Source: Desulfoscipio sp. XC116 (lineage in GTDB: Bacteria > Bacillota > Desulfotomaculia > Desulfotomaculales > Desulfallaceae). Taken from it: 64,000 bases of DNA. The stretch lies in contig NZ_CP156660.1 in NCBI RefSeq assembly GCF_039851975.1, positions 3,849,035 to 3,913,034 of the forward strand. The letters run 5' to 3'. Below, one piece after another: positions 12,547-33,383 of the stretch; the first letter of the stretch is position 1; every line of letters starts with the position of its first letter. The notes beneath the pieces were generated by a model. That model had not been told where the DNA came from and did not search any database. It saw nothing but the letters and a program-made list of their open reading frames with translations. The translations under genes and the position numbers were made by a program.

Positions 12547-15500
12547 TCACTCAAAAGCAAGAACAGACGGCAATCGCCGGTCAATAAGTCTTAGCATGAC
12601 ATAGCCTATACCGGATATTCCATTGAAGAACGAAAGGTCATGTATAGTATCATCAAAACATTCCCGATACCGGGCCGCCCTTTTTAAAGCTTCGTTATAA
12701 AGCTCCGCATCGTCAAGTCTGTTTGATACGGTAAGCAGTACATCAATCAACCCGAAGTTGCCCCAACCGAGATCGTTTTTGCTCAAATCAACGGCGTTCC
12801 TGATAAGGTTAAGGACAGCTTTCAAATCACTGTTCCGCTGCCCCAATCCTATAATATCGCCGGCTTCCAGCCTGTTTAAGCAGATACCCGCGGCTCCGGT
12901 ACACCATGAAAGCTGAATTTCAGCACTTTGGCCCTCTAAACCCGGCCAGGCGTACTCTCTATCCCGAAGTATATCGTTTTCATAGCAAACGGCTTCACGG
13001 GCAGCCTGCATATATCTGGCCTCGCCTGAAACCTTATAAAGTCTGCCAAGCGCCATCGCAATACCCGAAGCCCCCCTGGAGAAAGCCGGAACAGGCCGGT
13101 TAGCAAGAGTAAACATACCCGAGGGCTTCCAGGCCTTTAAACCGTTAGCACCTTCCACCCTGCATGCCAACAAGTGATCCGCGCATTTTACGGCCCGCCG
13201 CAAAACCTCGTCGAAGGGACATGCTCCATATAGAGCTAAGAGACCGAGTATGGCGCCCGCAGAGCCGGATATCACGTCATACTCATCATCATTGGCAATC
13301 AACCGGTCGCTGATAGTCCGAGACAACTGCAATGCCTTGCGCAATAGCAATTCATCGGCGGTCAACTCCCATATCTTTACAAGTACATAAACAATTCCGC
13401 CCAGCCCTTTACCCGCTCCGATACGCCCGGTTCCCGAGACTCCTTTCTGAACCCGATCCGCAGTTTTAATCATTTCATTAACCAGTTCAGCTGGGGGAAA
13501 TTTCATATCCGCTTGATCACCCAGGATTTTTCGGCAGGCTGATAAAAACAGGCATACACCCGCTTTTCCGTTATACAGGTTGTCATTCATAATATTCAAT
13601 TCTATGTACGGATTAATCCCTTTAACAATGTTCGGCCAGGTCACGCTTGTATCAGTTATTATAGCCCGGTCACAAATATAACCGGCTATCGTCTCCGCCG
13701 CCTCCGGCAAGCGTTCCCGGTTGATCATACCAACGTGCTGCTTTCTGTTTATTATATTCCCTTCCGCAGTCCGACCCCTGCTATCTTGCACTACCGCATC
13801 CTTAACTCTGAATGACTCTCCGATCAGTGCACACTGCTTGGCCAGGTCATCTTCACTCATGCCGTAGATCCTGCATTTCGCAACCGCCATGGGTGTATCC
13901 GTGAAAAAGTTTTCTATAACCCGGCCATTTTCATTCTCCAGCCGGCGGTTGCAGGTGTTAATATAAAATATGGGGATATCACCCCGATCGAAAGCTTCGT
14001 GTTCCAGCCTGACAATGTCCCAATGCGCGGGTTTTTTACTGTCGGCCAGCAGCGTCCGGCTGATTTTGTCCAGCCTGATGCTGCGCAATATACCATTTTC
14101 CAAATACTGTGGCCGCATTGAATTGTAAAGAATAGTAAAATACAGGTTTGTTCTCCTGAATACATACCGGACCCTTTTATCTTCAAACATACTTAACGAA
14201 CCGGCTGCGGAAAGAAGCCTGTCTCTGTGACGCAGTATCGCATTGTAGGCTTTTTTAAAGCCCGCCTCAATGTCTTTCAAATACTCCCCGGGTTCTACCC
14301 GCTTACCGTCAAGATATACGCAGCTCTTGCTTTCAGCCGCACCCCGAGCAGCAACGGCCTGTTCATCATTATGCCCGCCCCCAAGACCGGCAAGAGAAAA
14401 GCAACCGTTACGGTCCCTAAAAAACTGGACAGGTAAAAGTGACGTTTCCAACACAGTGTGCTCGCCCGGCTTTGATTTTTCATGTTCGGGCGAAGGCTGC
14501 AGTATCACTTCCAGATCGACAGCTACCGGGTATTCCCCTTGAGCGATTATATTTTCGTGATGCAAGTCGCCGCCGGCAAGAAGATACATTATACAAAGCA
14601 GCATACCGCCGCGCCTGTAATAACCGACTACCTCCCGTTCATTCCGGCACGGAAGGTGCTCGCAGTATTCAACCCAGCCATGACTTCCCCGGTTCAGGAT
14701 TTTCAATACCCTGAACATGTCCTCATTCTCCAAGGCATTTATTTGCGCGACAAGATGAAAGAAGCTTTCCTCTATCCCCAGGTCGCGCGGTTTGAATATA
14801 AGCTTAAGCTTGCTCTCAAATGCCAGTTTTATTACACTTCGTCCTCCGCTATGCGGGTCAGAGAGACCGCATTCAATCCGGTTGACCCTGCCCGGATGCC
14901 ACTGTTCCCCGAAAACCCCGCCGATGAGATCCATATCGTCGGCAAGCGCGTTCAGGAGCTGAGCCGAAGCATCAACCCAGAATAATGTAAATTGAGACAT
15001 CAACCTGGCCATGACCGGATATTTCCCGAATACTTTGAGTATCTCTCCTTTAAGCAGGGCATCAATAAAGACAGGGTATCTGCTGTTCCCAAGCTCCATT
15101 TCCGCATGTAAAACATCAACCGAAACAAAGCTAAGCCGCAAAAGCAGGAAACGTACCAGGCCGGTAAATGCCTGCAGGGTAAACAAATCGTTTATTTTTC
15201 CGCTCCGCTCGTAAAGCCGCTTAATACCTGTATTGGCAAAGAGCATCTGAATTTCTTCAAACGGGTGTTTTTCATCCTTGAAGGCATGAGGGCTTTTGCA
15301 AAGCTCACTGGCAGTGGTACGGCCGGCCAGCTCCAGCACCTCCCCCAGCAGCACCGCCCACGGGGAGTCCTGCTCTCCTTGCCCCGTTACGGCATCCGCC
15401 ATCAGCCCCAGCGCCGTTTGATTATCAATACCGTCCCAGGTTAACCTTTTTTTAAAAACCAGGTTATCATTGGCGGCCGCATACTCTTTCCACTGCTTTA

Positions 15501-15624
15501 ACCTTCGCTCCGCATTTTCCGTATCCAGCGCATGTATAGTTTTGCCTGAAACAACGTCCAGTCTTTCATATAATGTTTGCGCATGCCAAGCCATGTCTTG
15601 CACATACTTGCCGACAGTTCCCAT
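12547..15624 (-). CDS. lanM: LanM-type lanthipeptide synthetase, dehydratase intact, cyclase zinc site lost
   Basis: 1025 residues from ATG 15624, 1 bp after the radical SAM stop (TGATATG) with RBS AAGGAT; the longer frame would overlap the rSAM gene by 80 bp. LanM dehydrates Ser/Thr in the core by phosphorylation and elimination. All dehydratase motifs are visible: SDPHSGGR (D256, H258), IFKPR (K278), GDLHHEN (D353, H355, N358), VDLE (D370), RRTN (T492). In the LanC-like half (~650-1025) only WCTG (C908) remains. The catalytic His motif (HG) is SRG (Arg850), and the usual CHG is GWG (Gly953-Trp954). Ring formation by zinc-activated Cys should therefore fail. Last gene of the RiPP biosynthetic run. 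Confidence 0.88.
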   Translation of the reverse strand: MGTVGKYVQDMAWHAQTLYERLDVVSGKTIHALDTENAERRLKQWKEYAAANDNLVFKKRLTWDGIDNQTALGLMADAVTGQGEQDSPWAVLLGEVLELAGRTTASELCKSPHAFKDEKHPFEEIQMLFANTGIKRLYERSGKINDLFTLQAFTGLVRFLLLRLSFVSVDVLHAEMELGNSRYPVFIDALLKGEILKVFGKYPVMARLMSQFTLFWVDASAQLLNALADDMDLIGGVFGEQWHPGRVNRIECGLSDPHSGGRSVIKLAFESKLKLIFKPRDLGIEESFFHLVAQINALENEDMFRVLKILNRGSHGWVEYCEHLPCRNEREVVGYYRRGGMLLCIMYLLAGGDLHHENIIAQGEYPVAVDLEVILQPSPEHEKSKPGEHTVLETSLLPVQFFRDRNGCFSLAGLGGGHNDEQAVAARGAAESKSCVYLDGKRVEPGEYLKDIEAGFKKAYNAILRHRDRLLSAAGSLSMFEDKRVRYVFRRTNLYFTILYNSMRPQYLENGILRSIRLDKISRTLLADSKKPAHWDIVRLEHEAFDRGDIPIFYINTCNRRLENENGRVIENFFTDTPMAVAKCRIYGMSEDDLAKQCALIGESFRVKDAVVQDSRGRTAEGNIINRKQHVGMINRERLPEAAETIAGYICDRAIITDTSVTWPNIVKGINPYIELNIMNDNLYNGKAGVCLFLSACRKILGDQADMKFPPAELVNEMIKTADRVQKGVSGTGRIGAGKGLGGIVYVLVKIWELTADELLLRKALQLSRTISDRLIANDDEYDVISGSAGAILGLLALYGACPFDEVLRRAVKCADHLLACRVEGANGLKAWKPSGMFTLANRPVPAFSRGASGIAMALGRLYKVSGEARYMQAAREAVCYENDILRDREYAWPGLEGQSAEIQLSWCTGAAGICLNRLEAGDIIGLGQRNSDLKAVLNLIRNAVDLSKNDLGWGNFGLIDVLLTVSNRLDDAELYNEALKRAARYRECFDDTIHDLSFFNGISGIGYVMLRLIDRRLPSVLAFE

Positions 15625-15625
15625 A

Positions 15626-17620
15626 TCAAATATCCTTAAGCCATGTAAATGATGGTATGGGCTTACCAGCCCTTTTTTTATTGTAAACGGTTTCGCGAGT
15701 TGCAAGGCTCAAAACCCGTCCGCCCAAATTCAATACCAATTTCCATTCCTTAAGCCTGCCGATAACATCATTCAATTCCAGTCGTCTTATGTTCAGCCCG
15801 TAATGCCGGTTGAAGTTTTCCAACAACTGAACAGCCGGCCTAGGCCGCCTGCAAAATTGATGCACTTTATGTTCAAGCCCTTCCAGGTAGTATTCATGTT
15901 GGCAGGCACAATCCCTGGTGTCTGTTATAATAGTCATATCCTCCAGTTCACACATGATAAGCTGCGGCTTGCCATCTTTCTTGCAGGCGATTGGCAGGCC
16001 ACCACTTAAGTCCGAGCTCCAGCCTGAATAAAAGGCCCTGTTCCACTCGTCAAAACATGCCTTAATCCGCTGCGCGCCCGAGCCCGCACCTCTTCCCTCC
16101 CGCGTATAATCTTCAAAAAAACAGGCCATATTTTCAATTTCACAGCTATCAAGCGGATATATATAGGCATATGTTTTATACGGCGACAAATTAAGCCCAT
16201 ACTTGTCTTGCCGGTTGTAATAAGAGCTGAAACGGTCAAATCTTATTTTGCTGATACTGTCCGGCGGTTCAAGATGGTAAATCAAAGGAAGCCACTGCGA
16301 TGTTTCATCATTCCAGGCATCATCTTCTCCCGGTATACCAATAAGGTAATTCCACGACACCTTGATGCCGTTTTCCATAGCATATTTAAGCAAAGCTATA
16401 TTCCAAGCCGCAAAATTCCCCTTGTTCATTAGCTTCAGCGAGTTGTCGTTAAGACTTTCAATGCCCGGCTGAATCCAGGTGATGCCGGCTCGTTTCAACG
16501 CCACAACCTGTTGTTCATTTAAATTGGCTTTGGTCTCGAAAAAAAATGTATTCAACGGCCTGCTTGCCGATATACGGGGCAGAAGCTCCTTGAAATGGTT
16601 CATGTCCATAATGTTGTCCGAAGCAAAAAACCTGTGCAGCGAATACTTTTGCGACAGCGCGGCAATCTCATCAATTACCCTGTCTGCCGACTTCCTTCTG
16701 AACTTCACATTTTTTCCGTTGAGCCCGCAAAAATTGCACTTATGTTTTTGCCCCCACCAGCAGCCCCTTGATGTTTCGATCATTAAAACAGGGGTTATGC
16801 CTTCCCTTGCCGATAATCTTCCCAGTTCCGCAAAGTAATCCGCATAATCAGGTACGGGAACACTATCCAAATCATCTATCATCGCCACGGGTGAAGTTAA
16901 GTCGTTATCCCTCACCGCACGCACATATTCCCGGGAAATCACGCCATAAGGCAAAACCTCCTGCTTTACAGCAGTCCCGTCAGCCAGTATCTTTTCGCAA
17001 AAATCAGGAAAATTTAAGTCCGCTTCCCCCGACATGACAAAATCCAGCCACGGAAAACACCTTAATGTTGTCTGCCCCATGACCCCTTCGCAATTCGCCC
17101 CACCCATAATCGTAATCACTTCGGGATTCAGTTCCTTCAGTTTTCTGAGCAGGGCCAGTGAGGAACAGTGCTGCTGGAACATTGAACTGCAGCCGGCAAT
17201 ACGGGGGTTCATTGCCAGTATCCTTTCGGCCGCCTCATTGATAAAAACACCGGCTTTTTCCCTCATTTCCAGCAGGAATTCAACGATATTTTTATGTTCA
17301 CTGAATTTATTAAGGATAATGTCTATAAAACCCTCTTCATGATATGATGCCGCCAGGGCCAGATACTCGTCATCACCGGCGTGAAAACCCGGAAAAGCGG
17401 CCCTTGAAAACGTCCATTCAGCCAAAAGACTTGCCGGATTTAACAAACGACAGATTAGATTATAATTTTTAATGCCGATTTTCTCTGCAAACCAAAACTT
17501 CGCATAAACCGCCCCGGCATCTATCCCTTTTCCTTTTGCTGCCGCAACCAACTGTCCGATACCAATGGAAGGCATGTGCAATAAATCGTACGGCATTGAA
17601 ATAATACATACATCCGGCAT
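15626..17620 (-). CDS. Cobalamin-binding radical SAM RiPP maturase (C-methyltransferase type)
   Basis: 664 residues. N-terminal B12-binding-like domain (MPDVCIISMPYDLLHMPSIG; GGANCEG near 173), then a radical SAM core with the unusual C-x7-C-x2-C cluster motif RGCWWGQKHKCNFCGLNG (C287, C295, C298). That motif and the overall plan are those of the RiPP maturation radical SAM protein 1 family, associated with C-methylation of Nif11/NHLP-type peptides. RBS GGATAGGGG, 37 bp after the YcaO gene. Here the likely substrates are Thr/Val/Ala carbons of the core at 22402-22713. Confidence 0.88.
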   Translation of the reverse strand: MPDVCIISMPYDLLHMPSIGIGQLVAAAKGKGIDAGAVYAKFWFAEKIGIKNYNLICRLLNPASLLAEWTFSRAAFPGFHAGDDEYLALAASYHEEGFIDIILNKFSEHKNIVEFLLEMREKAGVFINEAAERILAMNPRIAGCSSMFQQHCSSLALLRKLKELNPEVITIMGGANCEGVMGQTTLRCFPWLDFVMSGEADLNFPDFCEKILADGTAVKQEVLPYGVISREYVRAVRDNDLTSPVAMIDDLDSVPVPDYADYFAELGRLSAREGITPVLMIETSRGCWWGQKHKCNFCGLNGKNVKFRRKSADRVIDEIAALSQKYSLHRFFASDNIMDMNHFKELLPRISASRPLNTFFFETKANLNEQQVVALKRAGITWIQPGIESLNDNSLKLMNKGNFAAWNIALLKYAMENGIKVSWNYLIGIPGEDDAWNDETSQWLPLIYHLEPPDSISKIRFDRFSSYYNRQDKYGLNLSPYKTYAYIYPLDSCEIENMACFFEDYTREGRGAGSGAQRIKACFDEWNRAFYSGWSSDLSGGLPIACKKDGKPQLIMCELEDMTIITDTRDCACQHEYYLEGLEHKVHQFCRRPRPAVQLLENFNRHYGLNIRRLELNDVIGRLKEWKLVLNLGGRVLSLATRETVYNKKRAGKPIPSFTWLKDI

Positions 17621-17657: not shown

Positions 17658-19541
17658 TTAAATATGGACTTGCTTTCGTTGATCTATCCGGTTTTCAAGC
17701 TGTTTTTCCTTCAACCTCATCCGCATCTTCCTTATTGCATCATACGAACAGCGGCTTGAGGCATGACATGCTTGACAATTAAAGCAATTAAGAGATGTGT
17801 AAAGCCGTTTCAGAATCTCACGAGGCTCCCCGGCATGCCGCATAACCTGATCCCAAATATCACAGGTATAAAACTTATTCAAGAATCCAATGGCTTTCTC
17901 ATCCCCGATACCTCTCGTTAACGCACCGGCATAATCCCTCAGGCAGGCATAATAAGCCGCGTTAGCGTCATTACGGCTCTTCATGCGCGCGGCGACATAT
18001 CCGAATCCCCTGTACGCTTCATTATATTTGCCCAACCTGTAATAACAGGCGGCCAGCAGAAAATCCCAAGCCGATTGTCCGCCGGGAAAATCAGGCTTTA
18101 ACGGCAATCCGGCGCTAAACTCCAGACTGTTCTCAAGAGCCCAGTTCCTTTTATATGACATATATCTGACTAATTTTTGCACATCTTCTTCAGAGGCCTC
18201 AGGCAGCTTTCTGATGATATTTTTAACAACATCCAGAGTGCTTTTTTCTCTTAGCCTTTGGGTACCGAAATTAAAAATCTCACTGTAACCGGGCACAACT
18301 ATTTGAAAGCTGTGAAATCCCAGATATGAAACATCGCGAATCATTATTTCATGACCTTGACCTGCCAATTGGCTGATTGCATACTCTAAAAGCTCACCGT
18401 TGGTTTCCCCGCCATGGTCATTAAACGGAGTGAACTCATAACTGTACTTTTCGGAAAAGAACTGTTCCGGATACTGCCCTGACGCCACCTTTAAAATATT
18501 GTGCAGATTGTCCGGTCCGCCGACCTGCTCAAATCCGTTGGCAATACGGCAAACTTGGGCCGCGGTTGAGATATCCCGCCCCTGGAACATCTCGGTAAGC
18601 GTCCTTTCCAAGGCTATTTCGAACACCGGGTGAGCTCCGAACTTGACGACATAAGCCCGGGCATCCAGATTAATCAGGACAGAAGCGATAACCGGGAATC
18701 CGCTGTCCAAAGAGCAGTCTTTAATGATCAACTTGTAATTTCCCTTGCTTTCTATCTGCCTGATAATACCGTAAAGACGTTCATATCGGCGCAAATACCA
18801 TTCAGGGATGGTGGGAGGGGTTAATCTTTCAGTAATGATTCGCACATTGGCATGGCGTTCGAACAGCTCCGACAATCCCTGTAACAGCGCTTCCTCACGG
18901 GTATTCCCGGCGCATGTCCCGTTGCTGCCGTATATGGCTCTGAGAATGGATACCGGCATATAGTACAAGTCACCGGTCCGCAAGCTGCAAAATGGGATGG
19001 CCACAAAATCATGGCCGCAGCCCCGGGGTACGGCAAAACTCCACCGTTTAAGCAATGCATACCTCTCACCGATTGCTCCGTCAGGATCGAGAAGCCTTGC
19101 CGCAAGTGAACCGAGCATACCGCTTCCGGGCTTGATTTGCTCATCTTTATGCCTGATTATATCAAGCAACTTATCCACCCACGGGTTATCTTCCCGGGCC
19201 AGTTCCTTGATACCCATCAGTCTCTCGTCCGGTGCATAATAAAAGCCGCAGTGCTTCCACACCTCTTCATCATAATCGCCGGAATAAAGCAAGTCGTTCT
19301 GGATTCGCTCCATTAACTCCGCATAGGCACTGGCCAGAGCAAATTCAGACGTTGCCCCCTTGCCGTTCTGCCCCATACCTGTTCCCGCAATTTCCACCCT
19401 CAACGAGTAACACCCGTCGACCTTGGAGTCCGTCCATTTATCAATAGTGGATATCCCTAATCCATGCAAGATGTTTCTTATCTCATATACCGTGTCCAAC
19501 GGAGGAGTTTCTTTGAACTTGTTTCGCAGCAAAAAGCTCAT
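17658..19541 (-). CDS. YcaO protein 1 (E. coli YcaO subtype, C-terminal 4-Cys motif)
   Basis: 627 residues. The YcaO ATP-binding glutamates are in SAYAELMER (S71-R79) and GLSELFERH (~225). Stretches GSNGTCAGNTREEALLQGL and FGAHPVFEIALERTLTE follow the E. coli YcaO protein (RimO accessory, TPR-like tail), not azoline cyclodehydratases. The C-terminal region is TPR-like (LLAACYYRLGKYNEAY) and ends with C586-x2-C589-x2-C592-x5-C598, which E. coli YcaO lacks. YcaO enzymes phosphorylate backbone amides (azoline, thioamide, amidine chemistry); which applies here is unknown. ATG overlaps the previous stop by 4 bp. No E1-like partner, TfuA or flavin dehydrogenase in the cluster. Confidence 0.85.
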   Translation of the reverse strand: MSFLLRNKFKETPPLDTVYEIRNILHGLGISTIDKWTDSKVDGCYSLRVEIAGTGMGQNGKGATSEFALASAYAELMERIQNDLLYSGDYDEEVWKHCGFYYAPDERLMGIKELAREDNPWVDKLLDIIRHKDEQIKPGSGMLGSLAARLLDPDGAIGERYALLKRWSFAVPRGCGHDFVAIPFCSLRTGDLYYMPVSILRAIYGSNGTCAGNTREEALLQGLSELFERHANVRIITERLTPPTIPEWYLRRYERLYGIIRQIESKGNYKLIIKDCSLDSGFPVIASVLINLDARAYVVKFGAHPVFEIALERTLTEMFQGRDISTAAQVCRIANGFEQVGGPDNLHNILKVASGQYPEQFFSEKYSYEFTPFNDHGGETNGELLEYAISQLAGQGHEIMIRDVSYLGFHSFQIVVPGYSEIFNFGTQRLREKSTLDVVKNIIRKLPEASEEDVQKLVRYMSYKRNWALENSLEFSAGLPLKPDFPGGQSAWDFLLAACYYRLGKYNEAYRGFGYVAARMKSRNDANAAYYACLRDYAGALTRGIGDEKAIGFLNKFYTCDIWDQVMRHAGEPREILKRLYTSLNCFNCQACHASSRCSYDAIRKMRMRLKEKQLENRIDQRKQVHI

Positions 19542-21388
19542 AAAACACCCCCGGTATTAAAGATTTCAGCCAGTCTTTCCTGATTGATCGGATTGGCGGC
19601 ATACCTCTCCTTCAACACCTTAAGCACCTTCTCGGTCCCTTTGTAGCAGCAGTATTCTCCGGCCTGACAACTTTCGCAATCCCAACAGGTGAATTTAGGA
19701 TAAATGCGCTCAAAAACCTGCTCCGGCTCATGCAATTGGCGAATAACCTTTTGGGCAATTTCCAGCGGGTATATTTGCCGCAAAATAGCTTGAATTTCTT
19801 CTTGGGCCAAGCCGGCAGACCTTGCTTCGGCATAATCCGCCAGGCATTTGTAATAGCAATATTGCTCATCTTCACCGCCGTCATGAACAGCGGCCACATT
19901 TCTCAATACCCGGCAGGCTTCGTCCAATCTGCCAAGCTTGTACAGGCATACAGCCATAAGCAAGTCCACATCGGCTAAGCCGCCGGGCAGCGCTTTAACA
20001 AGCGGTCGCCCGATGATCAGGTGCATCCGGTTTTCCAGCAGTGAATACCTCTTAAATCGGATATATCTAACAACTCTTTCCAGTTCTTCATCGGAAGCCC
20101 GGCCAAGATTACCGATGGTTTTTGACATAGCCGTGTACGTCTTTAGTTCCTTGACCCTCATTAAGTCTGCAGGATACATTTCACTAAAACCCGGAACAAT
20201 GATTTGGTAACTGGGAAAACCAAGAAATGAAACATCCCTCACCAGCAGGTCATAACCTTGATCAACCAGAAGCTTAACCATGTGCTGAAGCATTATTTTA
20301 TTTAAACGCACATGACGGTCATCCATAAATGGCTTGAATTCATAGCTGAATTTATCTGCAAGCAATTCCGCGGGATATTGACCCGCACCGACTTTAGCGA
20401 TATTAACAGCGTTATCTCTGTGATAAAGGAATTCGTCCTTAAATCCTATTCTGCAGCTTTGGGTAAAGCTTTCAATATTTTGCCCCTGGAAGGCTTCGGT
20501 AATCGTCCTTTCCAGAGCAATCCGGAATGATGGGTGAACGCCCAGCTTCATACCAAAGGTACCCTTGCGGGTATCTATGATCATAGTTCCTACCACAGGG
20601 TATTTTTCCCCCAGGGAGCAGTCTTTTACCACTACCCGGTAGCGTCCGCTTTGCCGGATGGCCCGGATGATCCTGTACAAGCCGGGATAGTTCATCAGGT
20701 AACTGTCCGGTATGGTTGGGGGAGTTATCCGATCGGTAATCAGTTTTTTATTAACATAACGTTCGAATATTTCCGATAACCCCTGCACCAGAGCTTCCTC
20801 CGGGGTATTCCCCGCGCACATCCCATTGCTTCCATATATAGAGCAGTACATGTCATGCAACAAATATTGAATATCATTTCTTTTAATACTGTAAAACGGG
20901 ATAGTAATCGCGCCGGAGGGATAACCGGGGGGATTGAATACCGTCCAGTTTTTTATGCACTCCAGCCTGTCGTTACTTTTAATTTCAGGCATATGTCCCA
21001 TGGTCTCAGAAAGGACATAATTCAACATGTCATTATCCATTTCGGCTATTTCATTATAAGAGCAATATTTCTCATCAGGAGCAGCCACAAACCCGGCATG
21101 GGTTGCGGCCTCATCGGTTAAGCCGCCAAGATACAGTATCTTATTCTGCATACGCTCCATAAGCTCCGCGTAGGCACTGGCCAGCGCGTAAACCGGGTCG
21201 GTTCCCTTACCATTCGAGCCCATGCCCGTACCGGCAATAGAAACCCTCAGGGCATGGCATCCTTCAATTCCGGAATCTATCCAATCATCAATGGTCGGGA
21301 TACCCAAACCGTAGAGAATATTTCTTATTTTATGTACCGTATCCGCCGGTAAGGCATCTTTAAACCTGTTATAACTTAAATTATCCAT
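19538..21388 (-). CDS. YcaO protein 2 (paralogue of YcaO 1)
   Basis: 616 residues from ATG 21388, chosen because MDNLSYNRFKDALPADTVHK aligns with the start of YcaO 1 and because it overlaps the methyltransferase stop by 8 bp (ATGGATAA). ATP-site motifs SAYAELMER and GLSEIFERYV are present; FGMKLGVHPSFRIALERTIT matches the paralogue. It ends with the same spacing C568-x2-C571-x2-C574-x5-C580. The two paralogues are clearly diverged, so they may form a heterodimer or act in sequence. The four-Cys tail could hold zinc or an Fe-S cluster. Confidence 0.85.
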   Translation of the reverse strand: MDNLSYNRFKDALPADTVHKIRNILYGLGIPTIDDWIDSGIEGCHALRVSIAGTGMGSNGKGTDPVYALASAYAELMERMQNKILYLGGLTDEAATHAGFVAAPDEKYCSYNEIAEMDNDMLNYVLSETMGHMPEIKSNDRLECIKNWTVFNPPGYPSGAITIPFYSIKRNDIQYLLHDMYCSIYGSNGMCAGNTPEEALVQGLSEIFERYVNKKLITDRITPPTIPDSYLMNYPGLYRIIRAIRQSGRYRVVVKDCSLGEKYPVVGTMIIDTRKGTFGMKLGVHPSFRIALERTITEAFQGQNIESFTQSCRIGFKDEFLYHRDNAVNIAKVGAGQYPAELLADKFSYEFKPFMDDRHVRLNKIMLQHMVKLLVDQGYDLLVRDVSFLGFPSYQIIVPGFSEMYPADLMRVKELKTYTAMSKTIGNLGRASDEELERVVRYIRFKRYSLLENRMHLIIGRPLVKALPGGLADVDLLMAVCLYKLGRLDEACRVLRNVAAVHDGGEDEQYCYYKCLADYAEARSAGLAQEEIQAILRQIYPLEIAQKVIRQLHEPEQVFERIYPKFTCWDCESCQAGEYCCYKGTEKVLKVLKERYAANPINQERLAEIFNTGGVL

Positions 21389-22301
21389 TTCGGTCACTCT
21401 TTTCCCCGACAACCAGCGCATTAGCGCCCCCATGCCATTCCCAGATGAGGTTTTCTCCAATATTCCGGAGCAGATAATCCCGCCTGGCAAGCAGGAGCCT
21501 CAGATAGCGGTCACACTCGTCCCGGCTGAAATATTTTCCTGTCTCCCCCAGCTCCATATAGTTCAGCAGCTTTTGTCTTTCGGCTTCATACATGCCCATG
21601 ATATATTCCTGCTTCTCACCGGCAGGCACAGCCGCATTACTGAGAGAGAAAGCCTTGCCTATCGGATAAAGACAAACGTTGTTCAAACCGGCCTCGGCAA
21701 AGAAATGGGGTATTTCGGATGTAGGGAGCCCCCCGGTGTAATTTGACAGAGGATTAATTGATTGGTACATGTTCCATACTTTCGCTTCCAACTCAAGCAA
21801 TTCTTTATGCCAGGCGCACTCAACCGGGTAGTAGCCCTTATGCCAGGTCTGATTGACAAAAGACATGGCGGTGATGGATGCAATCATACCTCCGGGTCTG
21901 GTTACCCGCATCATCTCGGATAACGCTTTTTTCGGATCTTCCACACTGGTAAAAAAAGTATGGCTCACCACAATATCAAAACTGTTTTCGGTAAAGGGCA
22001 ACTTACAGGCATCCCCGACAATAAATTCAAAACTGCCCTTCACACCTTTATCTTGAACCGCCCTCCCGGCTTGCTGTATAAATACGGCATCGGTATCAAT
22101 GCCTGTAATTTTCAAGTTTTCCGCCCCATCAGCAAGATAACGGGCAAAGCAGCCTGTCCCGCAGCCTACGTCCAGCAGTTCCATTCCCTGTGTAATACAG
22201 CAGTATTTCATAATTAAAGGCCTTAAATCATCGCTCAATAATGCTTTTCTTGTCATTTCCATATAGGTGGGATTCTGAAAATATTTAGACCATCTCATCA
22301 T
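21381..22301 (-). CDS. Class I SAM-dependent methyltransferase
   Basis: 306 residues. Rossmann SAM-binding motifs LDVGCGTGCFARYLA (motif I, ~43-57), TGIDTD (II), VGDACKLPFTENSFDIVVSH (III/IV) and RVTRPGGMI. Soluble. 100 bp downstream of the precursor gene and overlapping YcaO 2. Likely an N-, O- or S-methyltransferase that tailors the peptide; the target cannot be read from sequence. Confidence 0.85.
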   Translation of the reverse strand: MMRWSKYFQNPTYMEMTRKALLSDDLRPLIMKYCCITQGMELLDVGCGTGCFARYLADGAENLKITGIDTDAVFIQQAGRAVQDKGVKGSFEFIVGDACKLPFTENSFDIVVSHTFFTSVEDPKKALSEMMRVTRPGGMIASITAMSFVNQTWHKGYYPVECAWHKELLELEAKVWNMYQSINPLSNYTGGLPTSEIPHFFAEAGLNNVCLYPIGKAFSLSNAAVPAGEKQEYIMGMYEAERQKLLNYMELGETGKYFSRDECDRYLRLLLARRDYLLRNIGENLIWEWHGGANALVVGEKSDRNG

Positions 22302-22401: not shown

Positions 22402-22713
22402 TTATATGGCAGCTGCGGCCGCAGGTCCTGCCGCACCAATGGTAGCGGTAACAACAGTAACTGTATTATCATCGCTCCAGCCGCCCGCCACTTGCTCCAG
22501 ATCGTCATCCGAAAGCTCGCCTTTGTTTTTCGTGATCGACTCGTTCAGCTTCTTCATGGTGGAAGTAAACTCATCAAAACTTAATCCGTCAACCGCACCC
22601 TTGGCAACCTCAAAAGCTTCCTCCGGGCTCTTGCATGCTTTCAGCTTATTCTGCAAAGCCTCATCCTTGCCCAGCTTTTCGATAAAACTCTTCATTGCCT
22701 CTGTCATGTCCAT
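22402..22713 (-). CDS. RiPP precursor, Nif11-type leader with Cys-free core
   Basis: 103 residues, RBS GGGAGGT, ATG. Leader residues 1-78 have the Nif11-like pattern (FIEKLGKDEALQNKLKAC, SPEEAFEVAKGAVDGLSFDE) and end ELSDDDLEQVAGG, a double-Gly site for C39 peptidases. The 25-residue core is WSDDNTVTVVTATIGAAGPA followed by AAAAI. It has one Ser and four Thr for dehydration, no Cys at all, and a poly-Ala tail. It lies directly upstream of methyltransferase, YcaO, radical SAM and LanM genes on the same strand. The only clear precursor in the cluster. Confidence 0.9.
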   Translation of the reverse strand: MDMTEAMKSFIEKLGKDEALQNKLKACKSPEEAFEVAKGAVDGLSFDEFTSTMKKLNESITKNKGELSDDDLEQVAGGWSDDNTVTVVTATIGAAGPAAAAAI

Positions 22714-25002: not shown

Positions 25003-25299
25003 CTATATACCGTCCTTTTTATCTAATATATCGTTCAAATTAACCCCACCGGCAACCATATCCAATTCATCATCCTCTATTTCACCGTTTTCCGGAATAG
25101 CCGACAGCATCTTTTTTATTCGGTTTATCCGCTCCCGGTTTTCCGGGGTATAATCCGCTTTCGCCAGCATCTGAGCAAGGAATAATAATTCTTTGTATTC
25201 TTCATCACAGCCCTCGTACTCAGATGAGCTGCCTGACTCCCCGGATACGATCTTGTCTATATCTGCAATGAATGACTCCAAGGAATGTTTATCGCACAT
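25003..25299 (-). CDS. Small protein ending in a GG leader-like motif
   Basis: 98 residues. The middle (EYKELLFLAQMLAKADYTPE, then NRERINRIKKML) resembles the helical body of small anti-sigma-like proteins. The end, EIEDDELDMVAGG followed by 13 residues VNLNDILDKKDGI, looks like a double-Gly leader junction (compare ELSDDDLEQVAGG in the precursor). The 13-residue tail has no Ser, Thr or Cys, so LanM cannot modify it. The start follows the sigma factor stop by 29 bp. It could be an anti-sigma factor, a signal peptide precursor, or both. Confidence 0.6.
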   Translation of the reverse strand: MCDKHSLESFIADIDKIVSGESGSSSEYEGCDEEYKELLFLAQMLAKADYTPENRERINRIKKMLSAIPENGEIEDDELDMVAGGVNLNDILDKKDGI

Positions 25300-25328: not shown

Positions 25329-25862
25329 TTAATATACAACTCCCTGCTCCTTTAAAATGTCCTTTAACTTTTTTAAGGACCTGTAGAGAATTGTTCCGAC
25401 ATTACTTTCCGTTATGTTCACCATCCGGGCGATTTGGCGGTTGGTTAGGCAAGCTCCGAATTTCAGCGCAATTACATTTCTTTGCCTGTCGTCCAGGCCC
25501 ATAATTGCCTTAAGAAGAAGTTCTTTTAATTCCCGGTCGATAATCAAATCCTCCAGCCGGTATTTTGATTCCACTTTCTCCAAGTCGATAGGCTCCGTAT
25601 GCCGGTTATTCTTCTTGAAGTAATTGATTATAGTATTGTTGGCTATAGTAAACAGCCACGTGCTGAACTTGCCTTTACCCGGGTTGTATGTATTAAACTT
25701 TACCAGCACTTTTTCAAACACTTCACTGACCAGGTCTTCCGCCGTACTAATGTCGCCTACTCTGTAAAGAATGTATTTGTAAACTTTGGGAAAGTATTCA
25801 TTATATACTTCGGAATATAAATCCGAATGTATTGTTTGTACGGGAATACCGTTAAAGTTCAA
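25329..25862 (-). CDS. ECF-type sigma factor
   Basis: 177 residues: region 2 (YFPKVYKYILYRVGDISTAE, DLVSEVFEKV, FSTWLFTIANNTIINYFKK) and region 4 (LDDRQRNVIALKFGACLTNR then QIARMVNITESNVGTILYRS). Lacks regions 1 and 3, so it is an extracytoplasmic-function type. Starts 2 bp after the preceding gene and is followed by the small GG protein, a position typical of an anti-sigma factor. Likely controls the RiPP cluster. Confidence 0.88.
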   Translation of the reverse strand: MNFNGIPVQTIHSDLYSEVYNEYFPKVYKYILYRVGDISTAEDLVSEVFEKVLVKFNTYNPGKGKFSTWLFTIANNTIINYFKKNNRHTEPIDLEKVESKYRLEDLIIDRELKELLLKAIMGLDDRQRNVIALKFGACLTNRQIARMVNITESNVGTILYRSLKKLKDILKEQGVVY

Positions 25863-25864
25863 TT

Positions 25865-27003: not shown

Positions 27004-29691
27004 CTAAGCAAGTTGTCTTTTAGCTAACTGGGTGAACACGCCATTTTGTTCAAACAATTCATCATAGGTGCCGCATTCGATTACCCGGCCCCGATCCAAA
27101 ACAATTATCTTGTTGCAATCGGCAATTGTGCTTAACCGGTGAGCTATGACTACTCGCGTTGCATTTAATCCGGATAAGCTTTTGCCCACGATTCTTTGGG
27201 TTTTATTATCCAAAGCACTGGTAGCTTCATCAAAATAAACGATCTTGGGTCCGGAGATAATCGCCCGGGCAATTAAAAGCCGCTGTTTTTGTCCCCCGGA
27301 AAGTGTGCCGCCACTCTCACTGACCATGGTGTGCATGCCCATGGGCATACTTTTAATATCCTCTTCCATACCCGCCATGCGGGCCGCTTCCCAAGCGTCG
27401 TCAATGGTTAAGCCCGGGTTCGCCCCGATAATGTTATCAAATATACTCCCGGACATTAATTGTCCGCCCTGAAGCACCACACCCAGTTGACGGCGAACGG
27501 CACGTATGTCGACATTTGCTAAATCCTGTTGATCGTAATAAACCTGCCCGGCTTCCGGCTTCTCAAAACCCAGTAATACCCTGAATAAGGTTGATTTTCC
27601 GCTGCCCGAAGGCCCTACTATACCCACATAGTCCCCCTGTTTGATTTCCAGCGTAACATCGTCTAAAATTAATGGACCGTCTTTTTCATAGCGGAAACTG
27701 ACATGGCTGACTTCAATATTGCCCCGGAGCTCTCCGGGATCCGCCTTTTCCTGGTCAAACTCGGGCAGAGTTACCAGAATAGGCTTGGTTCTTTCATATA
27801 ATGGCTTAATAATATTGAGCTGCAGGATCACAGTGGATATTTCAAGCATGGAGCTTAGGAATTTGGTAAACGCCGAGTTAAAAGCAATAAACTTGCCCGC
27901 AACCAGATTTACATCTTGCATTTTCAAAACCGCAAAGAAGATAATCCCCGATGCAATTACATTGACGGTGGAATTGAAAACCGCCATATAGTTACCCAAG
28001 TTTTCCTTTTTATATGTAACGTCCCTGACCTGGCTGAATTGCCGGGCCCAGTTATGGAAAGCCCGTTTTTCAGCCCCCGCGGTTTTTATTTTGCTCACAC
28101 CGCTGAGCAGGTTAAAAATCTTTCCTGAAAGCTTATTTTGCAAATCCACCAATTGGCGCTCATAGCGGATTTGTAAATACCCGCATGAAAGAGATATGGC
28201 CATAACAAATATAACAATAGCCAAGCAAATAAGGGCCAGTTTCCAGCTATAATAAAACAACAGGAAAAAATAAAATATCGAGAAGATACCGGAAATGACC
28301 GTGTTGGAAACAGCACCCGATAAAATAGCCCTGATCTGGCTCACGCCCATGGCCCGTTCGGCCAGCTCACCGGCAGTGTAATCCTTAAAAAAGGGTACGG
28401 GCAGACTCAATAACCGGTCCCAGATAGCCGCCTGCAAATCAGACTCCGTTCTTCCTTCTATCCGGTGCATAGCAAAAGCTCGGGTCAGGTTAAAAGCAAA
28501 AGTAGCTGTCGCAATTGCTATGAGTAAGAAACCAATCTGTGTGAGCAGCACTCTTTCACCGTCGGGAATGACGCTGTCAAAGATTATCCCCGTCACCACG
28601 GGAGTCAGCATGCCTAATAATCCACCCAGAATGCCCATAAGTAAAACGGTGGTAAGGTCCCTCTTCCGTATCCCACCGGCTAAAAAACCAAGTAATTCTT
28701 TATAACCGATCACCTTTGGGGGAAGAGGACGATAAAAAGTAAAAGCGTACGGTTTCAGAAGATCCGCTGCCTTACTGTCTACAACAGCCATGGTCTCGTC
28801 TGAAGGGTCATATAACTCGTACTTGGTTGGCGACAGCGGCAATAATGCCAGCGGCCGCCCGTCTTCTTCCCTGTAAACCAGCAGGGCGCCGTTGTCTTCT
28901 TTCCACCATTGATCTTTTAAGATAATTTGTCTCATTCTAATTTGTGACGCCCTGGCGATATCACCCAGCAAGTCCTTGGATGCCGCGTTTCCTTTACTAA
29001 GCTCGTTAGAAGGGACAATTTTAATATTCTTGGCCTTGCCCACCGCTGCGCAGGCCTTAAACAGCAAATTATCCACCAATGATTCTTGCACACCATCATC
29101 AGGCTTTTGTTTTAAGTTCATAGAGTTGACAAGACTGTGCAATCCGCTGCTCATTGAATAGTTGTCTGTCTCTTCTCTTGCTTGACATCTTAATACCTCT
29201 TCTTTTTTTTCGGCCAGAAGCAGCTCGACAACCCGGTTAAAAGCAGTTTTATTAAAGCCGGCCAGGTTATCTAATATGGCGCTGAGTTCAATATCCCGGC
29301 CAAAGTGCCGTTCTTCTTTAATCCCGGTACCGGTCCAATTTTTAGTCCATTTTTCCAGTAAGCCGGACAGCTTTTTCATATCTTCTCCGTCAGTCCCTTT
29401 CAATAACTGCCGGATTTCAGCCGCCAGTAATCTGGTTCCCGTGCACCCCACTGCCAGTAACCCGTACTGCGTCTCTCCCCTGACAACGGGCTCGGCCCCT
29501 AATAAGAGGTCCCCTTTTCCCGCGGTAAATAAATATTTTCTGCGGCCGGCCGCTTCACCGGCTGAGATTTTGGCGGCAAACAGATCAACCTGTCCCTCTT
29601 TAACTACCCATACTTTACCTGCGCCCAGAATTACAGGGTTGTTCCCCTCAGCTTTTATTTCTTTATGCTCCAAGCCTCTTAAAAAGTTCAC
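27004..29691 (-). CDS. NHLM-type ABC transporter, permease/ATPase without peptidase
   Basis: 895 residues. A long N-terminal cytoplasmic region (~1-330) precedes a type-I exporter membrane domain (DLTTVLLMGILGGLLGMLTP onward) and an ABC ATPase with Walker A GPSGSGKST, signature LSGGQKQR and Walker B IVYFDEATSALD. The long N-domain with no C39 Cys/His is the mark of the second ABC protein of NHLM peptide export systems. Works with the C39-ABC protein and HlyD partner just upstream. Confidence 0.88.
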   Translation of the reverse strand: MNFLRGLEHKEIKAEGNNPVILGAGKVWVVKEGQVDLFAAKISAGEAAGRRKYLFTAGKGDLLLGAEPVVRGETQYGLLAVGCTGTRLLAAEIRQLLKGTDGEDMKKLSGLLEKWTKNWTGTGIKEERHFGRDIELSAILDNLAGFNKTAFNRVVELLLAEKKEEVLRCQAREETDNYSMSSGLHSLVNSMNLKQKPDDGVQESLVDNLLFKACAAVGKAKNIKIVPSNELSKGNAASKDLLGDIARASQIRMRQIILKDQWWKEDNGALLVYREEDGRPLALLPLSPTKYELYDPSDETMAVVDSKAADLLKPYAFTFYRPLPPKVIGYKELLGFLAGGIRKRDLTTVLLMGILGGLLGMLTPVVTGIIFDSVIPDGERVLLTQIGFLLIAIATATFAFNLTRAFAMHRIEGRTESDLQAAIWDRLLSLPVPFFKDYTAGELAERAMGVSQIRAILSGAVSNTVISGIFSIFYFFLLFYYSWKLALICLAIVIFVMAISLSCGYLQIRYERQLVDLQNKLSGKIFNLLSGVSKIKTAGAEKRAFHNWARQFSQVRDVTYKKENLGNYMAVFNSTVNVIASGIIFFAVLKMQDVNLVAGKFIAFNSAFTKFLSSMLEISTVILQLNIIKPLYERTKPILVTLPEFDQEKADPGELRGNIEVSHVSFRYEKDGPLILDDVTLEIKQGDYVGIVGPSGSGKSTLFRVLLGFEKPEAGQVYYDQQDLANVDIRAVRRQLGVVLQGGQLMSGSIFDNIIGANPGLTIDDAWEAARMAGMEEDIKSMPMGMHTMVSESGGTLSGGQKQRLLIARAIISGPKIVYFDEATSALDNKTQRIVGKSLSGLNATRVVIAHRLSTIADCNKIIVLDRGRVIECGTYDELFEQNGVFTQLAKRQLA

Positions 29692-29775
29692 GGCTCAACC
29701 ATCCTTTACTCCGATACTACAACTTAATATTGTTTGCTTTACTGCGCCCGCCAATCTTTTGATTATGCTGTAGTA

Positions 29776-31938
29776 TTAACTGGCACGTATTAAATCCGCG
29801 TAAAGTCCACCCATGTTTTTTAATCCCTCGTGAGTACCGCGCTGAACAATTTTACCCTTATCCATGACGATTATTTCATCACAATCCCGGATGGTACTCA
29901 AACGGTGAGCGACAATAACGCAGGTACAACCGCGCCGGCGAATATTTTCATCAACCGTTTTTTCCGTTTGCACGTCCAGAGCACTGGTTGCCTCGTCTAA
30001 AATTAATATTGAAGGGTTGCCGGTTAACGCTCTGGCTATTTCGAACCTTTGCCGCTGCCCGCCGCTAAAGTTCGCACCGCCCTCACGTACTTTGTGCTCA
30101 TATCCTTTATCCCGGGTAGTTATAACATCATGTATGCAGGCATCCTTGGCGGCGCGTATAATACCGGTTTCCGGTATTGTATTATCCCACATGGTCAGGT
30201 TCTCCCTGATGGTCCCGTCAAACATATTGATATCCTGGTCAACCACAGCCAACGAATTGGTTATTACATCTCGGGGCAGCTTGTCTTTAGTTACCCCGTC
30301 AAGAAGCACTTCTCCCGACCAGGGTTGGTAAATGCCGGTAATCAACCTGGCCACCGTACTTTTACCGCTGCCGGAACCGCCTACCAGAGCCACCCGGGCA
30401 CCCGGCCTTAAAGTTAAGTTAAAATTTTCAATTAGAGGAGGGTCCCAGGGATTATAGCCAAAGGTTAGGTCTTTTATTTCCAAATACCCTTCCAGCTTTT
30501 TGTATTTATCTTCCTCGTTATCAACAGTTATTTCCCGGCTGACATTCTCGTCAACCTTGTATTTAAAAACATCCTCCAGGCGGTTTATATCCCCCTGCAC
30601 TTGTTTTATCCGCATGCCCATTTGCGTCAAACTGTTGACCGGGTTCATAAAGCTCGCCAACAAACCCTGGAAAGCAATTAAAGAACCTATGGTCAGGTTG
30701 CCGTTAATAATGATCAGGCCGCCCACAAACAGGATAACCACGTCGGCAAATTCCCTTAGAAAATTAGGCAGGTGAAACAGAATTTGCGTGGTTTGGCCCA
30801 ACTTCTGCTGGGCATTAATCTGCTTGGCATGGTAGCCCGACCATTTGGCAAAAAAGTCCGATTCGGAACCGGTGGCCTTTAATGTTTCAATAATGTATAA
30901 CCCCGAAATGGAAAAACCCCTTACTTTGCCCGCATCCTGCAATAATTTTTTATTCATGGTTTCGATCTTGTTGGACGAATAAACCAGATAGACAATACTT
31001 ATCCCGCCGAGAAGCAGGGAGATAAGGGTCAGATAAAAGCTATACTGCAGCATAACAATCAAGTAAAAGACCAGCGTCAGCATACCGATTGCCGTCTCAG
31101 CCAGTTCCCTCGATAAAAAGGCGGCTACCTGGTCATTGCTCCGCATTCTGTTGGCGATATCGCCGGCGGAACGCTGTTGGAAAAAAAGCACCGGCAACCT
31201 AAAAATATGCCAGAAAAATTTTCCCGCATTGGTCAGGGCGATTTTTGTTTCCATCCGCAATAAGTAATGCTGTTGCAGCCAGGTAAGCGTGGCCTGTAAA
31301 ATAACCACCGCCCCCATCACCCAGAGTAAGGGTTTGAGCCAGTCACTCTTCCCGCCCAGCAGGATATTGTCGATAAATATCTTGGAAAATGTGGGTATAA
31401 TGAGCCCCGGTATAACCATTAACAATCCTACAATAACTAAATAGACCAGTGCCGTTTGTGAACCTTGAACCCAGTTTTTCAAAGAAACTATAAAACTGCT
31501 TTTTTGACCACTGGGCTTAAAGTCCGGCCCGGGCCGAAACGCCAAAATTACCCCGGTAAAAGACAGGTCAAACTCCTCTTCTGTAACCACTTTGGGACCA
31601 CTGCCGGGATCGTTGATATACACCTTGTCCTTGTCAAAACCCTCCAAAACAACAAAATGGTTAAAATTCCAGTGGATAATAGCAGGCAGGTGCATCTCCC
31701 TCAGGTCCCGCGGTTCTTTGCGATAGCCTTTAGCCTCAAAACCGTATCTTCGGGCCGCCTTGAGTATATTGCTTGCTTTTACACCGTCGCGGGTAACCCC
31801 GCAATCAACCCTCAGCTGCTCAAGAGAGGTAAACTTTTTATAAAAAGCAAAAATCATCGCCAGGGAAGCGGCGCCGCATTCCACCGCTTCCATTTGTAGT
31901 ATGGACGGAACCTTTTTTCTCTCACTTTTTGTCCCCAA
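29776..31938 (-). CDS. NHLM-type peptidase-containing ABC transporter (C39)
   Basis: About 720 residues from TTG 31938 (GGGGTGA upstream); TTG 31959 is an alternative. An N-terminal C39 peptidase domain has the catalytic Cys in QMEAVECGAASLAMI, and the His/Asp motif in IIHWNFNHFVVLEGF and INDPGSGPK. Next come an exporter membrane domain and an ATPase (GGSGSGKST, FSGGQRQR, ILILDEATSALD). It cuts after GG and exports the peptide; its substrates here should be the precursor at 22402-22713 and perhaps the GG protein at 25003-25299. Confidence 0.9.
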   Translation of the reverse strand: MGTKSERKKVPSILQMEAVECGAASLAMIFAFYKKFTSLEQLRVDCGVTRDGVKASNILKAARRYGFEAKGYRKEPRDLREMHLPAIIHWNFNHFVVLEGFDKDKVYINDPGSGPKVVTEEEFDLSFTGVILAFRPGPDFKPSGQKSSFIVSLKNWVQGSQTALVYLVIVGLLMVIPGLIIPTFSKIFIDNILLGGKSDWLKPLLWVMGAVVILQATLTWLQQHYLLRMETKIALTNAGKFFWHIFRLPVLFFQQRSAGDIANRMRSNDQVAAFLSRELAETAIGMLTLVFYLIVMLQYSFYLTLISLLLGGISIVYLVYSSNKIETMNKKLLQDAGKVRGFSISGLYIIETLKATGSESDFFAKWSGYHAKQINAQQKLGQTTQILFHLPNFLREFADVVILFVGGLIIINGNLTIGSLIAFQGLLASFMNPVNSLTQMGMRIKQVQGDINRLEDVFKYKVDENVSREITVDNEEDKYKKLEGYLEIKDLTFGYNPWDPPLIENFNLTLRPGARVALVGGSGSGKSTVARLITGIYQPWSGEVLLDGVTKDKLPRDVITNSLAVVDQDINMFDGTIRENLTMWDNTIPETGIIRAAKDACIHDVITTRDKGYEHKVREGGANFSGGQRQRFEIARALTGNPSILILDEATSALDVQTEKTVDENIRRRGCTCVIVAHRLSTIRDCDEIIVMDKGKIVQRGTHEGLKNMGGLYADLIRAS

Positions 31939-31967
31939 GGCAATCACCCCAATATTCAAGCACTGAA

Positions 31968-33353: not shown

Positions 33354-33383
33354 AATGCCGTTACCTCCCTCCAAGGGTTCTCG

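What the first reader, a model, noticed from the sequence alone, without database searches (positions are those of the whole stretch)
17658..21388. Two tandem E. coli-YcaO-type proteins with an identical extra C-terminal four-Cys motif in a RiPP cluster
Both paralogues follow the E. coli YcaO (RimO accessory) architecture with TPR-like tail, not the azoline cyclodehydratase architecture. Both end in C-x2-C-x2-C-x5-C. The cluster lacks E1-like, TfuA and dehydrogenase partners, and the core has no Cys. E. coli YcaO works beside a radical SAM methylthiotransferase, and here a radical SAM gene is adjacent. This suggests backbone thioamidation or another sulfur insertion, with the Cys motif as Fe-S or sulfur-carrier site. 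The chemistry is inference.
Basis: partly seen in the sequence, partly recalled or inferred. Interest (0 to 1): 0.88.

Follow-up and report, generated by a model that had tools for sequence, protein, structure and literature searches.

The report
Paired YcaO enzymes on alanine-rich peptides
A sulfide-making bacterium carries a gene set for a modified peptide in which two enzymes of the E. coli YcaO kind, which in E. coli swaps an oxygen of a protein backbone for sulfur, are paired with an enzyme that caps the peptide's end; the same set recurs in distant bacteria and is probably an unstudied route to sulfur-containing peptide products.

Summary
The adjacent radical SAM enzyme is a cobalamin-type RiPP C-methyltransferase, not RimO (RimO lies 2.4 Mb away). 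The four-Cys tail is an old trait of this YcaO group, found in many loci without a Nif11 gene, so it does not mark RiPP clusters. Published work now shows E. coli YcaO thioamidates ribosomal protein uL16 with sulfide and without TfuA, which strengthens the thioamide idea. Nif11 precursors with small-residue-rich cores, a LahSB-type methyltransferase and EcYcaO-type YcaO recur in eight loci, tandem YcaOs in seven, with one methyltransferase-YcaO fusion. Eleven of 12 cores lack Cys; one lacks Ser and Thr too, so azoline formation cannot be the general reaction. Best reading: TfuA-independent backbone thioamidation plus C-terminal methyl ester in a sulfidogenic host. A new variant of known RiPP chemistry; the reaction and the metal of the Cys site are untested.

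The parts
22402..22713 (-). Nif11-leader precursor peptide; core after GG: WSDDNTVTVVTATIGAAGPAAAAAI (no Cys)
   Evidence: TIGR03798 44.8 bits, cut-off 32.3; sister precursor 84.5% identical with dN/dS 0.22
21381..22301 (-). LahSB-type class I SAM methyltransferase, inferred C-terminal carboxyl O-methyltransferase; overlaps the YcaO-1 start by 8 nt
   Evidence: 6uak LahSB 278.8 bits; AlphaFold model matches 6uak TM 0.84, 44% identity
19538..21388 (-). YcaO-1 (P0002), E. coli YcaO type with TPR tail; ATP-site residues intact
19649..19687 (-). four-Cys motif of YcaO-1, residues 568-580 CWDCESCQAGEYC, in the loop before the last long helix
17658..19541 (-). YcaO-2 (P0001), paralogue, 43% identical to YcaO-1 (alignment A1); 4-nt overlap with YcaO-1
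17748..17786 (-). four-Cys motif of YcaO-2, residues 586-598 CFNCQACHASSRC
15626..17620 (-). cobalamin-binding radical SAM RiPP C-methyltransferase (rSAM_ocin_1)
   Evidence: TIGR03975 656.7 bits, cut-off 281.9; Radical_SAM and weak B12-binding
12547..15624 (-). LanM-type synthetase with dehydratase domain; cyclase zinc site lost 2 of 3 ligands, so probably a dehydratase only
   Evidence: DUF4135 332 bits, LANC_like 158 bits; TIGR03897 656 bits; alignment with LicM2 6st5
29776..31959 (-). NHLP-family export ABC transporter with C39 peptidase, expected to cut at GG
   Evidence: TIGR03796 1092 bits, cut-off 853
27004..29691 (-). NHLP-family export ABC transporter, second subunit
   Evidence: TIGR03797 955 bits, cut-off 709
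31968..33374 (-). NHLP-system HlyD-like secretion protein
   Evidence: TIGR03794 359 bits, cut-off 156
25003..25299 (-). second small ORF with a leader-like GEIEDDELDMVAGG end and a short charged tail; possible extra precursor
   Evidence: conserved in the sister locus L007; no family match

Best explanation
This is a RiPP cluster whose conserved core is a Nif11-leader precursor with a small-residue-rich core, a LahSB-type methyltransferase and two EcYcaO-type YcaO proteins, exported by an NHLP transporter. Steps: (1) the Nif11 leader recruits the enzymes (inferred). (2) One or both YcaOs activate backbone amides with ATP and, using free sulfide of this sulfite-reducing host and no TfuA, replace carbonyl oxygen by sulfur, giving backbone thioamides in the Ala/Val/Ile-rich core (inferred). 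(3) The LahSB-type enzyme methylates the C-terminal carboxylate of Ile (inferred from a close characterised homologue). (4) In this genome LanM dehydrates Thr/Ser without closing lanthionine rings, since the core has no Cys and the cyclase zinc site is lost, and the B12 radical SAM enzyme C-methylates the core (inferred). (5) The C39 peptidase cuts at GG during export (inferred). The four-Cys tail is a metal site, Zn or Fe-S, in the C-terminal helical part of the YcaOs, more likely structural than a sulfur donor (inferred). Shown here: gene identities, architecture, recurrence of the module, TfuA absence, zinc-site loss, Cys-poor cores. Not shown: any chemistry.
For: EcYcaO-type by HMM, phylogeny and fold: 347-bit profile match over EcYcaO residues 8-535, Z 39.6, separation from azoline YcaOs on a 100/97 branch; catalytic Glu/Arg/Gln positions invariant or nearly so. 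After EcYcaO the next structural matches are the methanogen YcaOs (6pe3, 6ci7; Z 22-23), ahead of azoline LynD 20, TruD 16, McbD 15. EcYcaO thioamidates uL16 with Na2S, ATP and Mg2+ in vitro, no TfuA (PMC13063428); two methanogens without TfuA also carry thioglycine (PMC5589413). Non-acidic members of the EcYcaO group were predicted there to serve RiPPs; pI here 6.0 and 6.9 against 4.4. TfuA absent in own genome and in 42 relatives; host has dsrA (591 bits). Module recurs in L008-L011, L015, L020 (MTase-YcaO fusion) and a Lachnospiraceae-group genome G621. Eleven of 12 cores lack Cys, one (L010) has no Cys, Ser or Thr, so azolines cannot be the general product. LahSB methylates C-terminal Met/Ile/Val, matching the core ends in 11 of 12.
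Against: No mass or enzymology data. Thioamidation in bacterial RiPPs has so far been tied to YcaO-TfuA pairs, and EcYcaO reads a folded protein rather than a linear peptide. The YcaO fold also makes amidines, and one YcaO (ItfB) acts on the last two residues of its peptide, as the conserved C-termini here could suggest. EcYcaO is only about 22% identical. Why two YcaOs are needed is not explained. Not every host in the set is known to be sulfidogenic. The MTase model is of middling confidence (pLDDT 73.5), although its sequence match is strong.
Confidence: 0.5

Rival explanations
1. The YcaOs install backbone amidines (a nitrogen in place of the carbonyl oxygen), for instance at the C-terminal residues, rather than thioamides.
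For: [quoted passage not shown] core C-termini here are conserved as small residue plus Ile/Val/Met; cores lack Cys.
Against: The C-terminal conservation is already explained by LahSB-type specificity. EcYcaO, the nearest characterised relative by whole-chain fold, makes thioamides.
Confidence: 0.2
2. Ordinary azoline/azole formation on Thr and Ser of the core by a stand-alone YcaO pair.
For: Azoline formation is the commonest YcaO role; four Thr and one Ser in the window core; LanM-YcaO hybrids (dehydrazoles) make azoles (PMC10676384).
Against: No PxPxP C-terminus as seen in azoline YcaOs, no E1/Ocin-ThiF or dehydrogenase gene, SagD scores far below cut-off, separate clade, L010 core without Cys, Ser or Thr.
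Confidence: 0.1
3. The four-Cys tail is the sulfur source: an Fe-S or persulfide carrier that takes the place of TfuA and hands sulfur to the active site.
For: Four Cys mostly kept or lost together (24 of 34 have all four); no TfuA in 43 genomes; the family also has frequent Cys near the ATP motif and in the KDCSL stretch.
Against: Homologues without the tail persist with intact active sites (L014, L016, L028); one YcaO of the pair in each of L020 and G621 lacks the full motif; EcYcaO works with free sulfide and no tail; tail and Cys191 are not linked (p 0.14).
Confidence: 0.12
4. One YcaO is catalytic and the other is a scaffold or leader-binding partner in a heterodimer.
For: Strict tandem arrangement, 4-nt overlap; EcYcaO TPR part mediates dimerisation (PMC13063428); in L020 and G621 only one of the pair keeps the full Cys motif.
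Against: Both window copies keep all catalytic positions; L015 and L028 show one YcaO (L015 is cut by its contig start).
Confidence: 0.3

Closest known systems
E. coli YcaO (EcYcaO, uL16-Met82 thioamidating enzyme; PDB 4q84-86; PMC13063428)
   Same: Full-length fold with TPR tail, ATP-site residues, no TfuA partner, profile match 347 bits.
   Different: About 22% identity, not acidic (pI 6-7 against 4.4), four-Cys tail, tandem pair, in a RiPP cluster with its own precursor; well below the NF040716 cut-off.
lah cluster of Lachnospiraceae C6A11 (LahA/LahM/LahSB/LahT)
   Same: Nif11 precursors with small-residue-rich C-termini ending Ile/Val/Met, LahSB-type methyltransferase, unusual LanM-type enzymes, C39 peptidase transporter.
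   Different: Whether lah contains EcYcaO-type YcaOs could not be checked here: genome not reached and the original paper not held. The clusters found here are defined by that YcaO pair; most lack LanM next to it.
YcaO-TfuA thioamidation systems (thioamitides, thiopeptins, most methanogens)
   Same: Predicted product, backbone thioamides; Cys-independent; thiostreptamide S4 carries its thioamides in an Ala/Ile-containing tail (PMC8153245).
   Different: No TfuA anywhere in the genome; different YcaO clade with TPR tail and Cys site.
Dehydrazoles (carnazolamide; LanMbC plus YcaO)
   Same: LanM-like enzyme with a zinc-less cyclase domain next to a YcaO.
   Different: Azoline-type YcaO with dehydrogenase and a Cys-rich core there; here EcYcaO-type, no dehydrogenase, no Cys.

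Membership tests
E. coli YcaO type (EcYcaO architecture) | YcaO fold plus C-terminal TPR part matching EcYcaO over full length | tested here: met
   Z 39.6 over 561 residues, model 6-600 on chain 5-584; profile match to residues 8-535
E. coli YcaO type (EcYcaO architecture) | Phylogenetic placement with EcYcaO, apart from azoline YcaOs | tested here: met
   100/97 branch
EcYcaO equivalog NF040716 (uL16-modifying enzyme) | Score above curated cut-off of 700 bits | tested here: not met
   249 and 243 bits
EcYcaO equivalog NF040716 (uL16-modifying enzyme) | Strongly acidic protein (pI about 4.4) suited to basic uL16 | tested here: not met
   pI 6.9 and 6.0; EcYcaO 4.38
Azoline cyclodehydratase YcaO (SagD/LynD type) | Pro-rich PxPxP C-terminus | tested here: not met
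   Tails end in ...QRKQVHI and ...IFNTGGVL; azoline references L055, L057-L059 and L032 end in PHPFP or PHPLP
Azoline cyclodehydratase YcaO (SagD/LynD type) | SagD model above cut-off; E1/Ocin-ThiF partner gene | tested here: not met
   52 and 36 bits against 219; no ThiF match among cluster proteins
YcaO-TfuA thioamidation system | TfuA partner | tested here: not met
   0 in own genome and 0 of 42 relatives, control genome rings
Thioamide-forming YcaO (by function) | O-to-S exchange at a backbone amide | not testable with these tools
   needs mass spectrometry
LahSB C-terminal methyltransferase | Sequence and fold relation to LahSB | tested here: met
   278.8 bits, TM 0.84
LahSB C-terminal methyltransferase | Substrate C-terminus Ile, Val or Met | tested here: met
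   11 of 12 cores; L011 ends in Ala
RimO/MiaB methylthiotransferase (adjacent rSAM) | TIGR01125/MTTase relation | tested here: not met
   The rSAM matches TIGR03975 C-methyltransferase; RimO model not among its matches; RimO at C1:1479110
Class II lanthipeptide synthetase LanM | Dehydratase plus cyclase domains | tested here: met
   TIGR03897 655.6 bits, cut-off 304
Class II lanthipeptide synthetase LanM | Three cyclase zinc ligands | tested here: not met
   WCTG keeps the first Cys; LCHG of LicM2 aligns with LGWG
Nif11-leader RiPP precursor | TIGR03798 above cut-off and GG site | tested here: met
   44.8 against 32.3 bits

The most novel reading that the evidence does not exclude
A bacterial RiPP thioamidation route that needs no TfuA, in which the tandem YcaOs carry their own Cys-ligated Fe-S or persulfide site that feeds sulfur to the active site, on Ala-rich peptides that end as methyl esters.
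Probability: 0.1. Interest if true: 0.85.

Novelty: new variant of a known kind. Interest (0 to 1): 0.58.

Why it matters
How YcaO enzymes get sulfur without TfuA is stated as open for E. coli YcaO (PMC13063428). A RiPP cluster gives this YcaO type a small, co-encoded, expressible substrate, so the question becomes directly testable, and the Cys tail offers a defined feature to mutate. It would also point to a peptide class with thioamides and a methyl ester cap that searches keyed on TfuA would miss, and it extends the LahSB module from gut Lachnospiraceae to sulfidogenic Desulfotomaculia.

Tried and rejected
Viral contigs with the YcaO alignment: no relatives. Four-Cys tail against Pfam and PDB: no convincing family, only chance-level zinc-knuckle-like matches. 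A link between the tail and Cys191 of the ATP motif: not significant (p 0.14), although C515 shows a weak unadjusted association (p 0.02). The tail as a Nif11 marker: rejected. RimO analogy: rejected. First tree with poorly aligned azoline references gave long misplaced branches (L057, L060) and was rebuilt without them. Finding the lah cluster of strain C6A11: not reached in about 1,187 sampled genomes, some sampled more than once; the LahSB paper is not held. Two weaker MTase hits (G1041, G1506) proved unrelated and without YcaO. No coordinates of the model were available, so the Cys-Cys distances could not be measured. The supplement of PMC13063428 (its RiPP-associated examples) could not be read.
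Full report
What is there. On the minus strand from 22713 down to 12547 lie, in order, a Nif11-leader precursor, a class I methyltransferase, two YcaO proteins, a radical SAM protein and a LanM-type protein. The three subunits of an NHLP-family export system lie upstream at 27004-33374. The methyltransferase and YcaO-1 overlap by 8 nt and YcaO-1 and YcaO-2 by 4 nt, which suggests translational coupling (sequence). A sister genome of the same genus carries the same six genes in the same order, with 73-85% protein identity and dN/dS (YN00) of 0.16-0.29 for every gene, so the cluster is maintained.

The YcaO pair. Both proteins are of the E. coli YcaO type: NF040716 is the best model though far below its cut-off, SagD is far weaker, and EcYcaO is the best PDB sequence match. 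AlphaFold on an alignment of 34 relatives gave pLDDT 90.7. Against the PDB the whole chain, TPR part included, fits EcYcaO at Z 39.6; then come methanogen YcaOs (22-23), LynD (20), MusD (19), TruD (16) and McbD (15). In the tree EcYcaO and 47 family members lie together on one side of a 100/97 branch, with azoline YcaOs and the methanogen enzyme on the other. Catalytic positions are kept in both copies.

The four-Cys tail. It is real and exact in both copies. It is not confined to RiPP clusters. In a scan of about 85,000 species genomes, 42 loci with EcYcaO-type proteins were read; of 48 such proteins including EcYcaO, 26 have the full motif and the tree needs 8 changes of state. In the 34-row alignment 24 have all four Cys, seven lack the motif entirely, and only three show part of it; one of those has His in place of the first Cys. 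Such all-or-none behaviour is what a metal site would show, but the metal is not known and no library names the motif. Since homologues without it remain, it is unlikely to be essential to catalysis in the family as a whole.

What surrounds the pair elsewhere. A Nif11 gene adjoins the YcaO in the window, L008, L009, L010, L011, L015, L020 and L028 (in L009 it follows the radical SAM gene) and in genome G621, which has five precursors. The methyltransferase is in all of these except L028. Each of these eight methyltransferase loci has an EcYcaO-type YcaO; seven have two, and L015 shows one but its contig begins inside the methyltransferase gene. In L020 methyltransferase and YcaO are one 903-aa protein. 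LanM adjoins the pair only in the window genome and its sister, and the B12 radical SAM only there and in L009, so these are additions to a common core module. Within the window's class, 4 of 113 genomes have intact copies of the YcaO pair and one has only fragments.

The methyltransferase. It is a homologue of LahSB, which methylates the C-terminal carboxylate of Met, Ile or Val without needing the leader (PMC11285071, PMC10952241). Eleven of the 12 cores collected end in Ile, Val or Met after small residues, as do LahA peptides whose primers are printed in PMC6363468. That it makes a C-terminal methyl ester is therefore a strong inference.

What the YcaOs do. Cores are 29% Ala and 13% Gly; 11 of 12 have no Cys and the L010 core has no Cys, Ser or Thr. 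Azoline formation therefore cannot be the shared reaction, assuming the L010 peptide is that cluster's substrate. EcYcaO has been shown to thioamidate uL16 directly with sulfide, ATP and Mg, with no TfuA, and its RimO link is described as indirect at best; the same paper predicts that its few non-acidic relatives serve RiPPs (PMC13063428). The window proteins are not acidic. Two methanogens have thioglycine without TfuA (PMC5589413). The host carries dsrA and so should make sulfide. In L032 an EcYcaO-type protein with the Cys tail sits in a thiopeptide-like cluster that already has its own azoline YcaO, dehydrogenase-like proteins and a Lant_dehydr_C protein, without TfuA in the genome: a second YcaO with a different job. 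All this favours thioamidation, at about even odds; backbone amidine formation, known for ItfB, is the main rival.

LanM and radical SAM. The LanM has a dehydratase domain but its cyclase keeps only one of three zinc ligands when aligned with LicM2 (identity of the ligands from established knowledge of LanC enzymes); with no Cys in the core, dehydrated Thr/Ser without rings is expected, similar to the zinc-less LanMbC enzymes of dehydrazoles (PMC10676384). The radical SAM protein scores 657 bits to the RiPP C-methyltransferase model; RimO is a separate gene far away.

Verdict. A well conserved RiPP module with EcYcaO-type enzymes: a new variant of known chemistry rather than a new kind. Its chief interest is that it gives the TfuA-free YcaO type a co-encoded peptide substrate. 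Gene identities, fold, distribution and module are shown; every chemical step is inference.

Noticed in passing
L032:2250-11734 (Ruminococcus flavefaciens MAG): Thiopeptide-like cluster with azoline YcaO (PHPFP end), two nitroreductase-type proteins, Lant_dehydr_C, ThiF and an additional EcYcaO-type YcaO with the four-Cys tail; no TfuA in the genome.
   Followed up: partly
L037, L038, L040-L045, L047, L048: EcYcaO-type YcaO in a conserved neighbourhood with a PPDK_N/PEP-utiliser-type phosphotransferase, SPASM radical SAM proteins and, in most, a B12-like radical SAM protein and an aminotransferase; purpose unknown.
   Followed up: partly
L018, L019, L024: EcYcaO-type YcaO with a ThiF/E1-like protein and an M50-peptidase-like protein; L018 and L019 also have an ABC transporter and a B12 radical SAM; another possible peptide cluster type.
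   Followed up: partly
P0002 residue 191, P0001 residue 210: The Ser of the YcaO ATP-binding motif (Sx6-7Ex3Qx3ExxER) is Cys in both window proteins and in 30 of 48 family members; not linked to the tail (p 0.14).
   Followed up: yes
window 25003-25299 (-); L007:4743-5063 and 5168-5374: Further small ORFs with leader-like EDDELDMVAGG or TDDQLEDVAGG ends, possible extra precursors with unrelated cores.
   Followed up: no
window 25329-26980 (-): ECF sigma factor and a 371-aa protein without family match; a homologue of the latter recurs in the G621 cluster next to a sigma-like ORF.
   Followed up: no
G397:C14:10244-12097: YcaO of this type broken into at least four reading-frame pieces, a decayed copy or assembly errors.
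   Followed up: no
L012, L013, L014, L016, L017, L023, L026, L027, L035: Solitary EcYcaO-type genes in housekeeping surroundings, most with the four-Cys tail; they may modify a cellular protein as EcYcaO does.
   Followed up: no
L015:2316-2600: Nif11 precursor with an in-frame TAA in the leader in a rumen MAG (sequencing error or pseudogene).
   Followed up: no
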